A stretch of DNA of 37,197 nucleotides from Capnocytophaga leadbetteri (GTDB lineage: Bacteria > Bacteroidota > Bacteroidia > Flavobacteriales > Flavobacteriaceae): the NCBI RefSeq assembly GCF_003054025.1, contig NZ_QBKG01000019.1, forward strand, positions 1 to 37,197, given 5' to 3'. The translations under genes were made by a program, and so were the position numbers. A model generated the notes under the pieces. It was given only the letters and a program-made list of their open reading frames with translations, was not told the origin of the DNA and searched no databases. Each line of letters begins with the position of its first letter. Position 1 is the first letter of the stretch. Below, in pieces: positions 1-36,803 of the stretch.

Positions 1-78
1 CCTGTAATGAAGCAACAAGCATCACCAACCAAGGACACAAGAACCAAGCATCAGCAAGCAGGAACCTGTAATGAAGCA
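1..78. repeat. short direct repeats at left edge
   Basis: The 14-mer CCTGTAATGAAGCA occurs at 1-14 and again at 65-78, with related AAGCATCA / AGCAAGCAGG stretches between the copies. No coding frame is evident. The first copy touches the window edge, so the array may continue to the left. Function unknown. Confidence 0.6.
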
Positions 79-311: not shown

Positions 312-1466
312 TTAGAAATTAACGCTTTGTAGGCTGTTTATCATTGTTTCGTCTATTAAGTGTGTATATATTTGCGTTGTATCTATTTTGCTATGCCCTA
401 AAATCTTTTGTACAACGTATATATTTACCCCCTTACTTAGTAAATATGTAGCGGTTGTGTGTCGTGCGCTGTGAAAAGTAATGTGCTTTTCAATGCCTGC
501 AAGTTCGCAAATTCGTTTAATATATCTGTTTAATGTATCATTTCTTATAAACTTAAAAACTTGCATACTACCAAAAATATAGTTACTTCCTATGATTTTT
601 AGGGGTTTCCCATTAAAAAGTAAGTATATAGGTATCATTAATTTTTCATCAGTTTTTTGCTGCTTTTTTTCTATCCACTTTTGCCCGTTAATAGTTACTA
701 TATTAGACGGGCGAAGCGTTATAATATCAGAATAACGTAGCCCCGTATAAACAGAAAATAAAAACAAATCACGGGCATATATTAGTTTTTTGTCTGTTAG
801 TGTTACATTTTCTATTTGTTCAATTTCAGAAGCTAATAAAAACGCCTTATCAGTTTTTTTTACTGTTATTTTGAATTTTCTAAAAGGATATTGATTTATA
901 TTCATAAGGTCGGAATTTATAGCCAAATTAACAAACTTACGAACAAGGCGCAAGTGTGTAGCTACACTATTAGCTTTTAAATTTTGTTCAAGCAAATACT
1001 TTTCAAAGGATTTTAAAAAATCAAAATCAATATCAGAAAAAGACAAATGTTTATTAAAGTTATTAAGGTGCTTAATAGTTAATAAAAGAGCTTTTTTTGT
1101 GCTTTGTTTTACTGTATCTTTTTCAATTTGCAAAGCACACCAAGAGTTAAAAGTATTATTTTTGGAGGAATTTAAAGCATTAGATAGCATTTCCAGATTA
1201 ATAGCTTTATTATTGTTTATTCGTTCAATTTCATAATTTTCTAATGTACGAAGCATTTCAGATATAAGGGCATTTTGCTGTATAGCATTAGGCGTCCCTT
1301 TGATTGTTTTTGTTTTTTCGTGCCATTGTGTAGGTGCTACCTTAATTTTAGTATCAAAGTATTTACGTTTGCCGTTTAAATAGCATTCAATTTGTATGGG
1401 TGCCTGTCCGTGTTTATTAAGTTGGTTTTTGCGGTTGAAACGAAGAGTGTATTTTATCTTTTCCAT
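312..1466 (-). CDS. tyrosine recombinase / site-specific integrase
   Basis: This 384-residue protein has the three-part layout of Bacteroidota phage/ICE integrases: an N-terminal arm-type DNA-binding region (about 5-90), a SAM-like core-binding domain (about 105-200) and a C-terminal catalytic domain. The full catalytic set is visible: R244 in TGLRYSD, K271, H332 and R335 in HSARH, H358 in LGHSK and the nucleophile Y367 in IYTH. It is therefore probably active in strand exchange. The gene is clearly richer in A+T than the purC operon beside it, which suggests transfer. It has its own TAnnTTTG promoter and a terminator, and is divergent from purC. No excisionase, relaxase or phage gene is present in the window, so whether it belongs to an ICE, a prophage remnant or a DNA-inversion module cannot be decided here. 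Confidence 0.93.
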   Translation of the reverse strand: MEKIKYTLRFNRKNQLNKHGQAPIQIECYLNGKRKYFDTKIKVAPTQWHEKTKTIKGTPNAIQQNALISEMLRTLENYEIERINNNKAINLEMLSNALNSSKNNTFNSWCALQIEKDTVKQSTKKALLLTIKHLNNFNKHLSFSDIDFDFLKSFEKYLLEQNLKANSVATHLRLVRKFVNLAINSDLMNINQYPFRKFKITVKKTDKAFLLASEIEQIENVTLTDKKLIYARDLFLFSVYTGLRYSDIITLRPSNIVTINGQKWIEKKQQKTDEKLMIPIYLLFNGKPLKIIGSNYIFGSMQVFKFIRNDTLNRYIKRICELAGIEKHITFHSARHTTATYLLSKGVNIYVVQKILGHSKIDTTQIYTHLIDETMINSLQSVNF

Positions 1467-7867: not shown

Positions 7868-7900
7868 CAAAGGTATAAATTATTTATCAATTAGCAAATT
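7868..7900 (-). promoter_or_regulatory. promoter of the acyl-CoA ligase gene (promoter half of dispersed repeat)
   Basis: On the minus strand TACCTTTG (7868-7875) matches TAnnTTTG, with TTG (7895-7897) 19 nt upstream. The 33 bp from here are nearly identical to the promoters at 24932-24964 and 36390-36421: all begin AATTTGCTAATTGA and end TACCTTTG. Confidence 0.75.
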
Positions 7901-7927
7901 ATTTAGTTTAATAAGAGGGGCTGGAGT

Positions 7928-8010
7928 TCGCTTATCCTTCGCTTATCCTTCGTCACATACTCGGCTGTGCCAGCTCGCCGACTTTCCTTCGCTCGTCCTA
8001 AAGGGTACGT
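7928..8010 (+). repeat. dispersed intergenic repeat, copy A (core half)
   Basis: TCGCTTATCCTTCGCTTATC starts at 7928 and is followed, after a divergent middle, by AAGGGTACG at 8001-8009. The core matches the 5' part of copies at 24845 and 36518 (minus). Here the core points toward the DUF2339 gene, while the matching promoter half (7868-7900) points the other way toward the ligase gene, so this locus appears rearranged. Together with the two promoters this accounts for the 291-bp gap between the divergent genes. Confidence 0.6.
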
Positions 8011-8058
8011 ATATCCAAAGTAAAAGGAAGGTAGGTATAAAAGATTTTTCTTCTTTTA

Positions 8059-24773: not shown

Positions 24774-24844
24774 AAAAAGTTTAAAAAAATATTGGTTATA
24801 GTAAAATTATAATGAAATTCACTCAGTTATAGCTCGCTAATTTT

Positions 24845-24968
24845 TCGCTTATCCTTCGCTCATCCTATATTGTTCCTATATCGTTTGTATAGGGTAAAAG
24901 CGTAAGAGAAAATTTTTCTGCTAATTGGTAAATTTGCTAATTGACAAATTATACACTACCTTTGTGCC
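24845..24968 (+). repeat. dispersed promoter-carrying repeat, copy B
   Basis: This stretch aligns along nearly its whole length with 36518-36386 on the minus strand. Shared blocks in order are TCGCTTATCCTTCGCT, TTCCT-TATCGTTT, AGGGTAAA, TTTCTGCTAAT, AAATTTGCTAATTGA, AAATTAT and TACCTTTGTGCC. The last block is the -7 element of the promoter for the carboxyltransferase gene, so the promoter is part of the repeat. Confidence 0.75.
24934..24964 (+). promoter_or_regulatory. promoter of the carboxyltransferase gene
   Basis: TACCTTTG (24957-24964) matches TAnnTTTG with TTG (24934-24936) 20 nt upstream. The leader is about 15 nt. The sequence is shared with the promoters of the acyl-CoA ligase and ctlX genes. 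Confidence 0.75.
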
Positions 24969-36385: not shown

Positions 36386-36518
36386 GGCACAAAGGTACAA
36401 ATAATTTATCAATTAGCAAATTTGCCTATTAGCAGAAATTTTTTATCTCCACATTTACCCTTTACGAACGATACAGAAACGATACAGGAAGAGCTAACGA
36501 TAAGCGAAGGATAAGCGA
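36386..36518 (-). repeat. dispersed promoter-carrying repeat, copy C
   Basis: Read on the minus strand from 36518, it begins TCGCTTATCCTTCGCTTATC, continues through TTCCTGTATCGTTTCTGTAT, AAAGGGTAAA, ATTTCTGCTAATAGG and AAATTTGCTAATTGATAAAT, and ends TACCTTTGTGCC at 36386. It matches copy B (24845-24968) in the same order and orientation relative to the downstream gene. Confidence 0.75.
36390..36419 (-). promoter_or_regulatory. promoter of ctlX-apt
   Basis: On the minus strand TACCTTTG (36390-36397) matches TAnnTTTG with TTG (36417-36419) 19 nt upstream. The leader is about 30 nt. It forms the gene-proximal end of repeat copy C. Confidence 0.75.
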
Positions 36519-36547
36519 CCCATTACCGAAATATAAACATCTACTAT

Positions 36548-36633
36548 CCCAGCCCTCTCAGTCCTCCCAGCCTTCCCTCAATCGCCGGTGCGGCTCGCCC
36601 TCCCAGCCCTCCCAGCCTTCTCATTCCTCCCAC
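36548..36633. repeat. C-rich degenerate tandem repeat with a G-quadruplex motif on the minus strand
   Basis: Several degenerate copies of CTCCCAGCC(C/T)T occur between 36548 and 36633, interrupted by GCCGGTGCGGC. At 36598-36613 four C3 tracts are separated by 1, 2 and 1 nt, so the minus strand carries a G3-N1-G3-N2-G3-N1-G3 motif. The surrounding DNA is very AT-rich, so this stretch stands out. The rest of the 448-bp gap (36356-36803) is AT-rich sequence in which I see no gene. Confidence 0.75.
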
Positions 36634-36803
36634 CAGTCCCACAATTCAAAATTCATAATTCCCCTCGCACTATTTAGAGCGCTTTATAGACTTAAAAAAC
36701 TCTTATCTCTATAGTGAGTAAAAGAAAATAATAAGGTAGTTCTTTTTTATTGTATTGATTGTTAATGAAATAAATTTTTAACAACACATCTGATACATTA
36801 CCC

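What the first reader, a model, noticed from the sequence alone, without database searches (positions are those of the whole stretch)
24845..24968. A ~125-bp repeat that carries a complete promoter lies upstream of two unrelated genes
24845-24968 (+) and 36518-36386 (-) align over their full length in the same order: TCGCTTATCCTTCGCT, then TTCCT-TATCGTTT, AGGGTAAA, TTTCTGCTAAT, AAATTTGCTAATTGA and TACCTTTGTGCC. The last part is a full -33/-7 promoter that drives the carboxyltransferase gene in one case and ctlX-apt in the other. The similarity stops near the start codons and the genes are unrelated, so this is not gene duplication. A small non-autonomous element that inserts or is copied with an outward promoter would explain it; co-regulation by conserved sites would also do so. 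Divergence is greatest in the middle and least in the two end blocks.
Basis: partly seen in the sequence, partly recalled or inferred. Interest (0 to 1): 0.7.

Follow-up and report, generated by a model that had tools for sequence, protein, structure and literature searches.

The report
Fixed-length 11-bp-phased repeat between genes
The two matching stretches are copies of a short DNA element scattered over a hundred times through this bacterial genome, mostly between genes read in opposite directions; in sister species its length, left end and 11-base rhythm are kept while the letters of the repeat change.

Summary
The two stretches are 81% identical, far beyond chance, and belong to a genome-wide family: 134 model hits at about 125 places. 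The conserved unit is a non-coding frame of about 131 bp: left end (TAGTATATTTTTCTG), leader, array in 11-bp register, palindromic right end (AGAAAATTTTTCTG); 25 of 41 full-length copies are exactly 131 nt. The promoter is not part of it: both genes keep their promoters in sister species without the element. Copies lie between divergent genes in 53 of 72 classifiable cases, against 14 of 47 long background gaps. In two sister species the left end, length and register recur around array units of unrelated sequence; one genome uses at least five units. No target-site duplication, RAYT transposase, RNA fold or significant 11-bp phasing with the promoter was found. Most likely it is a dispersed, MITE-like element serving as a helical-turn-phased protein platform beside promoters; spread and binder are inferred. 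Nearest described relative: BrickBuilt of Porphyromonas.

The parts
24790..24920 (+). Element copy A, 132 nt when padded to the model ends; left end degenerate, right end intact; between a fabH-type gene (-) and the carboxyltransferase gene (+), i.e. divergent
   Evidence: R1 model hit 24793-24920, model 6-132, 85.9 bits; padded; context
24834..24900 (+). 11-bp-phased array of copy A: TTCGCTTATCC-type units, then TATATCGTTCC-type units, then TATAGGGTAAA
   Evidence: Sequence; tandem repeats of period 11 at 24844-24866 and 24863-24885
24907..24919 (.). Right-end palindrome AGAAAATTTTTCT of copy A
   Evidence: Sequence; the same palindrome is enriched in G001, G008 and G013 and sits beside 11-bp arrays in G008 and G013
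24933..24964 (+). Promoter of the carboxyltransferase gene (TTTG-N20-TACCTTTG); adjacent to the element, not part of it
   Evidence: Sequence; orthologous promoter without this element in G009 and G013
36433..36553 (-). Element copy B upstream of ctlX-apt; left end degenerate, right end present
   Evidence: R1 model hit, model 23-132, 82.6 bits
36390..36420 (-). Promoter of ctlX (TTTG-N19-TACCTTTG); adjacent to the element, not part of it
   Evidence: Sequence; orthologous promoter without this element in G018, G009 and G013
7882..8051 (+). Third, diverged element copy between an AMP-binding ligase gene (-) and a DUF2339 gene (+), divergent
   Evidence: R1 hits 7882-7953 (E 0.003) and 7979-8051 (E 2.8e-7); sequence; genes
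7950..7987 (+). GC-rich insert of about 38 nt inside the array of the third copy, a secondary repeat seen in other copies too
   Evidence: Sequence; same insert in other copies and in G001

Best explanation
SHOWN: a dispersed non-coding element with a fixed frame of about 131 bp (two similar A/T-rich ends, a leader, an array in 11-bp register) that lies in intergenic DNA, mainly between divergent genes, with its right end often just upstream of a -33 box. INFERRED: (1) copies spread by occasional transposition or ectopic gene conversion and are then kept; (2) the array is a platform for a protein that binds side by side, about one subunit pair per helical turn, on one face of the DNA, with the two ends as borders; (3) it acts as an upstream architectural or regulatory region that insulates or tunes the promoters beside it; (4) because register rather than letters is under selection, the unit can be replaced when the binder's specificity changes or when an array is homogenised. 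I give about 0.9 to the dispersed-element description, about 0.45 to a phase-based protein platform, and about 0.6 to MITE-like spread.
For: Copy number: 134 hits in G000. Length: of 41 full-length copies (ends padded to model positions 2 and 132) 25 are exactly 131 nt, 9 more are within 2 nt, and 7 are longer by 11-12 (3) or 27-32 nt (4), while mean ungapped identity among the 25 is only 68%. Register: mean lag-11 autocorrelation in G000 is 0.56 against 0.23-0.28 at the other lags 8-14. Same frame in other species: sliding the G000 left-end consensus over 140 offsets from the right end, the best offset is 131 in G008 (20 copies) and 130 in G013 (13 copies; next best 111, almost as high); nothing stands out at 130-132 in control genome G015. 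Left end 54% (G008) and 71% (G013) identical against 34-36% with shuffled columns, while array positions 61-110 are at chance (0.26-0.27 against 0.26). Period 11 is best beside 19 of 23 right-end palindromes in G008, 13 of 18 in G013, 0 of 14 examined in G015. Placement: 53 of 72 divergent; background 14 of 47 long gaps. A full promoter lies in the 80-nt window beginning 12 nt inside the right end in 30 of 68 copies, in the mirror window at the left end in 10 of 68 (Fisher p 3e-4). G009, which lacks this element at both window sites, has its own 11-mer repeats upstream of both genes. Analogy: ParR of plasmid R1 needs at least two 11-bp repeats, and ParR repeats vary between plasmid systems (PMC9426499, passages).
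Against: No binder identified or searched for. Right-end conservation in G008 and G013 is by construction, since those copies were picked by the palindrome, and the array side was chosen by its lag-11 score, which favours 11. No significant 11-bp phasing between element end and promoter (Rayleigh p 0.09 at period 11; 0.02-0.04 at 9.5-10.5, uncorrected for 13 periods and three distance measures). Neither window site has the element in any of the 19 other genomes. No target-site duplications. Divergent share is lower for array hits of sister species: G001 13 of 30, G013 5 of 10, G009 4 of 9. Many copies are partial: 41 of the 78 examined are full-length, and A and B are degenerate at the left end.
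Confidence: 0.45

Rival explanations
1. A plain MITE: a non-autonomous transposon with short terminal inverted repeats, moved in trans by an IS transposase, with no role of its own; it accumulates in divergent gaps because insertions there do least harm.
For: High copy number and sharp ends; the ends also read as an imperfect inverted repeat, 11 of 15 by my count; absent at both window sites in 19 sister genomes; in two cases the same divergent gap holds an array in opposite orientation in two species (C9:68243 and L287 of G001; C9:39776 and L306 of G013).
Against: No TSD at k 2-10 beyond small 2-mer fluctuations in 41 copies. The ends match better as direct repeats (13 of 15 by my count). Near-constant length at 68% identity and unit replacement in a constant frame are not expected of decaying inserts. 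Only 1 of 72 copies is in a convergent gap, which should be as harmless (not significant against 4 of 47, p 0.08).
Confidence: 0.3
2. Neutral minisatellite turnover: 11-mers expand by slippage and spread by ectopic conversion, and the frame is kept only because conversion homogenises it.
For: The genomes carry other intergenic minisatellites, e.g. periods 7, 8, 9, 14 and 16; G000 and G001 copies at one orthologous site differ by a 61-nt array block; stand-alone 11-mer arrays without ends are common in G001 and G013.
Against: The same length and register recur in G000, G008 and G013 although array letters are unrelated, so homogenisation within one genome cannot explain it; placement is strongly non-random in G000.
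Confidence: 0.2
3. One reading: insertion or copying brings a complete promoter to the gene.
For: A, B and the copy at C3:48564 share element plus promoter letters; in G000 the two promoters are more alike (score 73) than the two cross-gene pairs tried in sister species (33 and 28).
Against: Both genes have recognisable orthologous promoters without the element. In many other copies the letters downstream of TTTTTCTG differ, and 38 of 68 right-complete copies have no full promoter in the 80-nt window.
Confidence: 0.07
4. Co-regulation: the repeat is a set of binding sites of one regulator kept at a regulon's promoters.
For: Conserved letters within G000; position next to promoters.
Against: Not kept at the orthologous promoters of either window gene; the window genes beside the three copies are of unrelated families; unit letters change between and within genomes.
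Confidence: 0.1
5. A structured RNA or leader element.
For: None.
Against: Consensus folding energy -1.5 kcal/mol with 5 pairs and no compensatory change; no Rfam match in the window at gathering thresholds.
Confidence: 0.02

Closest known systems
BrickBuilt, minisatellite-bearing MITE of Porphyromonas gingivalis (PMC4596501; abstract, sections 5 and 9, and part 1 of 2 of section 7 read)
   Same: Dispersed intergenic Bacteroidota element; tandem core between a leader and a tail; unit gain and loss; promoter elements reported in its abstract
   Different: 23-nt unit, 19 copies, 84-991 nt long; its 12-bp TIRs resemble those of IS5-family elements, and three of the four copies with both TIRs have possible TSDs. 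By my reading of the strands in its Table 1, 2 of 19 copies are divergent and 6 of 19 convergent. The element here has an 11-nt unit, over 100 places, a near-fixed 131 bp, no TSD, and 53 of 72 divergent
parC iteron arrays bound by ParR (plasmid R1) and other ribbon-helix-helix protein arrays (PMC9426499 and PMC5016525, passages read)
   Same: Direct repeats near one helical turn (11 bp for R1 ParR), next to promoters; repeat letters differ between systems
   Different: Those are plasmid centromeres with their own binder gene; here there are over a hundred chromosomal places and no known binder. Analogy only
REP/BIME elements with RAYT transposases (recalled)
   Same: Short, dispersed, intergenic
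   Different: No conserved hairpin; no Y1_Tnp in G000, G001 or G013
Bacteroidetes -33/-7 (TTTG/TAnnTTTG) promoters (consensus recalled)
   Same: Found just downstream of many copies
   Different: Belongs to the gene, not to the element, at both window sites

Membership tests
MITE / non-autonomous transposon | Terminal inverted repeats | tested here: inconclusive
   Ends agree 11 of 15 as inverted and 13 of 15 as direct repeats, counted by eye on the consensus; the right end is itself nearly palindromic
MITE / non-autonomous transposon | Target-site duplication | tested here: not met
   41 copies, k 2-10, all offsets -6..6: no excess beyond small 2-mer fluctuations (best 10 observed, 5.4 expected, k 2)
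MITE / non-autonomous transposon | Parent transposase with the same ends | tested here: inconclusive
   17 of 18 left-end matches with at most 1 mismatch coincide with model hits; the 18th (C5:131159) also has a short array. No full IS search was made
MITE / non-autonomous transposon | Multiple dispersed copies, some sites empty in relatives | tested here: met
   134 hits; both window sites lack the element in 19 of 19 other genomes, two with little upstream DNA; strains of one species could not be compared
BrickBuilt | 23-nt unit and BrickBuilt TIRs | tested here: not met
   Unit 11 nt; ends TAGTATATTTTTCTG / AGAAAATTTTTCTG against the TIRs listed in its Table 2
REP-RAYT | RAYT (Y1_Tnp, PF01797) in the genome | tested here: not met
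   None in G000; found in 2 of 20 genomes (G016, G017), which have at most one element hit each
RHH-bound iteron array (parC-like) | Array of direct repeats of about 11 bp | tested here: met
RHH-bound iteron array (parC-like) | Cognate ribbon-helix-helix binder | not tested
   No search for a binder gene was made
Structured RNA | Covarying base pairs | tested here: not met

The most novel reading that the evidence does not exclude
A class of chromosomal element in which the register and length (about 12 turns of 11 bp between two fixed ends), not the letters, are the conserved information: a unit-swappable, phase-locked array that a family of array-binding proteins reads beside divergent promoters, with unit sequences turning over between sister species and coexisting within one genome.
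Probability: 0.3. Interest if true: 0.85.

Novelty: new variant of a known kind. Interest (0 to 1): 0.62.

Why it matters
If true, it is a bacterial non-coding element conserved in geometry while its letters are free to change, which sequence searches largely miss between species. In a 300-kb sample of this genome it is found in 5 of 20 divergent gaps, so it could affect how neighbouring promoters interfere, and it gives a simple test (re-space the array by one base per unit) of whether helical register is what is read.

Tried and rejected
Promoter inside the element: rejected at both window sites. RNA structure: not supported. RAYT-driven REP: not supported. Target-site duplication: none. Helical phasing between element and promoter: not significant at 11. 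Intrinsic curvature: not clearly raised. Relatives in the plasmid collection of a 301-base stretch around copy A: none. A name for the organism: the genome-contig scan returned its 80 best loci (Flavobacteriaceae and other Bacteroidota records), none labelled as the genus I suspect, and says that near records may be left out; the genus name Capnocytophaga is recalled, from genome size and protein look only. Literature: searches listed no paper that describes this repeat; I judged from listings, the library lacks most subscription journals, and several searches used the recalled genus name.

Limits of counts: searches scored 150 candidates per genome (of 2042 and 1931 for G000). Only the 78 best of 134 hits were analysed for context; 6 of the 78 were unclassifiable, 4 of the 53 divergent ones had a called ORF overlapping the element, and two loci (C13:13835/13922 and C8:8027/8102) were counted twice as divergent, so 51 of 70 without the duplicates. 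Genes were called by an ORF rule of at least 80 aa, not by a gene finder; a variant of the rule gave 16 of 240 gene pairs and 13 of 52 long gaps as divergent background. In one search the G013 copies were partly chosen by their left end and one (L434) proved mis-oriented, 4 of the 11 G008 copies had been seen to match at 131, and the right ends were selected by their motif; one search is the fairer length test. The number of G008 sites with best period 11 is 19 and 20 because ties were settled differently. In one search several ctlX starts were mislocated by my rule; one search repeated the check with tblastn starts and a profile search. The first terminus regex found few sites and was replaced by the pattern.

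Full report
Observation. The two stretches are as described: 24834-24968 (+) and 36518-36386 (-) align at 81%, and 1000 shuffled pairs never come near the score (81 against a maximum of 25). Both have a complete -33/-7 promoter and unrelated downstream genes. The window holds a third, diverged copy at about 7882-8051.

The family. A BLAST search of the window's own genome with copy B gives 52 matches at E<=10, 42 of them at E<=1e-5. A sequence-only model of 14 copies gives 134 hits at E<=1, about 125 places after merging adjacent halves by hand (only 150 of 2042 candidates were scored). At E<=0.1 the model has 101 hits in G001, 145 in G013, 18-19 in G008, 16 in G009, and at most 1 in each of the other 15 genomes. 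Many hits in G001 and G013 are arrays without ends.

Anatomy. Consensus: TAGTATATTTTTCTG, a leader with TTATTAGACGTTTATAC, TTCGCTTATCC-type 11-mers, TATATCGTTCC-type 11-mers, TATAGGGTAAGTG, AGAAAATTTTTCTG. Of 41 full-length copies among the 78 best hits, 25 are 131 nt, 6 are 130, 2 are 132 and 1 is 129; three are longer by 11-12 and four by 27-32 nt; copies with a GC-rich insert of about 38 nt are among the latter. The 25 copies of 131 nt are on average 68% identical without any gap (range 40-86%). There is no RNA fold and no target-site duplication.

Placement. Of 78 copies examined, 72 could be classed: 53 divergent, 12 with both neighbours against the element's direction, 6 with both along it, 1 convergent. 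In 300 kb of the same genome 20 of 245 gene pairs, 14 of 47 gaps of at least 150 bp, and 25% of intergenic bases are divergent, and 6 of 7 profile hits there are divergent, in 5 of the 20 divergent gaps. Binomial p is 2e-14 against long gaps and 2e-5 if each promoter counts once; the 47 best copies alone give 33 of 43. A full promoter (TTG-N18-21-TAnnTTTG) lies in the 80-nt window that begins 12 nt inside the right end in 30 of 68 copies with a right end, and in the mirror window at the left end in 10 of 68; shuffled right flanks give 0.8 on average, in a longer, 120-nt window. Of 32 promoters with the -7 box less than 80 nt from the end, 30 have it at 21-54 nt, without significant 11-bp phasing. 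In sister genomes the divergent share of array hits is lower: 13 of 30, 5 of 10 and 4 of 9.

The promoter is not part of it. The orthologous loci of both genes were fetched from 20 genomes. A profile of the 41 copies finds the element only in G000 (E 1.7e-22 and 7.9e-21); the one other match at E<=1 is a partial one of E 0.68 in G002 (little upstream DNA for G017 at one site and G014 at the other). The ctlX promoter aligns with those of G018, G009 and G013, and the carboxyltransferase promoter with G009 and G013, above all 500 shuffles, while two cross-gene pairs in these species do not exceed theirs. G009 has its own repeats at both sites: its multi-copy 11-mer element, on the other strand, upstream of the carboxyltransferase, and arrays of AGTGGCTCTAC, ACGAACAAAAG and GAAGATAAGGT upstream of ctlX. 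The shared tail of A and B resembles a promoter-type repeat with about 20 copies each in G010 and G018, which have at most one element hit each; why it is so alike at A, B and C3:48564 is not explained.

Relatives by position. One G001 site is clearly orthologous to a G000 copy and differs by a 61-nt array block; another shares only the left flank and left half, the rest being different DNA. In C9:68243/L287 (G001) and C9:39776/L306 (G013) the same divergent gap holds an array in both species but in opposite orientation, as inferred from hit and gene strands.

Same frame, other letters. The right-end palindrome AGAAAWWWTTTCT exceeds its reversed-pattern control in G000 (31 against 3), G008 (23, 5), G013 (18, 6), G001 (10, 3) and G015 (38, 5); several others are two- to threefold above control (for example G017 12 and 4, G016 13 and 6, G004 14 and 7) and the rest near it. 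I examined all 23 sites of G008, all 18 of G013 and 14 of 38 of G015. Taking the side with the higher lag-11 score, period 11 is the best of periods 5-20 in 19, 13 and 0 cases. A lag-11 identity of at least 0.5 is seen in 13 of 23, 5 of 18 and 0 of 14, where shuffles give 0.35, 0.05 and 0.8. G008 uses at least five units (GAGATGTGTTC, CCGTACTGATA, CCTATACTCAT, GTGAACCCCAC, TTTGTTTTCCC), G013 mainly CTCTATGGTAG. Sliding the G000 left end over 140 offsets from the palindrome gives the best mean match at 131 in G008 (7.65 of 15; mean of offsets 4.79, sd 0.70) and at 130 in G013 (8.31; mean 4.90, sd 0.96; next 8.00 at 111), and nothing at 130-132 in G015. The left end is conserved between species and array positions 61-110 are at chance. 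This is the strongest and most unexpected result; its weak points are small numbers, selection of G008 and G013 copies by palindrome and period, and the near-tie in G013.

Mechanism. To be explained are a near-constant length, a constant register, conserved ends, free unit letters and a place between divergent promoters. A protein that packs about one subunit pair per turn, bounded by the ends, would explain these; R1 ParR, which needs 11-bp repeats, shows that such arrays exist on plasmids (PMC9426499, passages). Spread by transposition in trans or by ectopic conversion is open. Curvature alone did not stand out.

Comparison. BrickBuilt (PMC4596501: abstract, sections 5 and 9, part 1 of section 7) is the nearest described kind, but unit, size range, ends, TSDs and gene context differ. 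I therefore file this as a new variant of the dispersed intergenic minisatellite-element kind and keep the phase-locked reading as the bold case.

Noticed in passing
L352-L360 (G009), e.g. L356:4779; also L234 upstream of the carboxyltransferase gene: G009 has another multi-copy element with fixed 11-mers (AAGATTCGTATAAGCTTCCTATAAGCTCTCTATAAGC), 10 copies in 200 kb, very uniform; one copy lies upstream of the carboxyltransferase gene on the other strand.
   Followed up: partly
window 36386-36420 and 7868-7900: A promoter-like repeat AATTTGCTAATTGATAAATTATTTGTACCTTTG recurs about 20 times in each of G010 and G018, which have at most one hit of the 131-bp element.
   Followed up: partly
window 7950-7987: GC-rich repeat of about 38 nt (TCGTCACATACTCGGCTGYGCCAGCTCGCCGACTTTCC) inserted in arrays of several copies and in G001.
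   Followed up: partly
window 36547-36640: 9-nt minisatellite (TCCCAGCCC type) upstream of copy B; similar GGGCTGGGAGGA stretches flank several element copies.
   Followed up: no
L271 (G001) against G000:C4:99062: Left flank and left half of the element are shared, right half and right flank are different: a possible rearrangement point inside the element.
   Followed up: no
G015: 38 right-end palindromes against 5 controls, but no 11-bp arrays beside the 14 examined; cause unknown.
   Followed up: partly
window 312-1466 (-): Tyrosine integrase gene (PF00589, PF17293) near the contig start.
   Followed up: no
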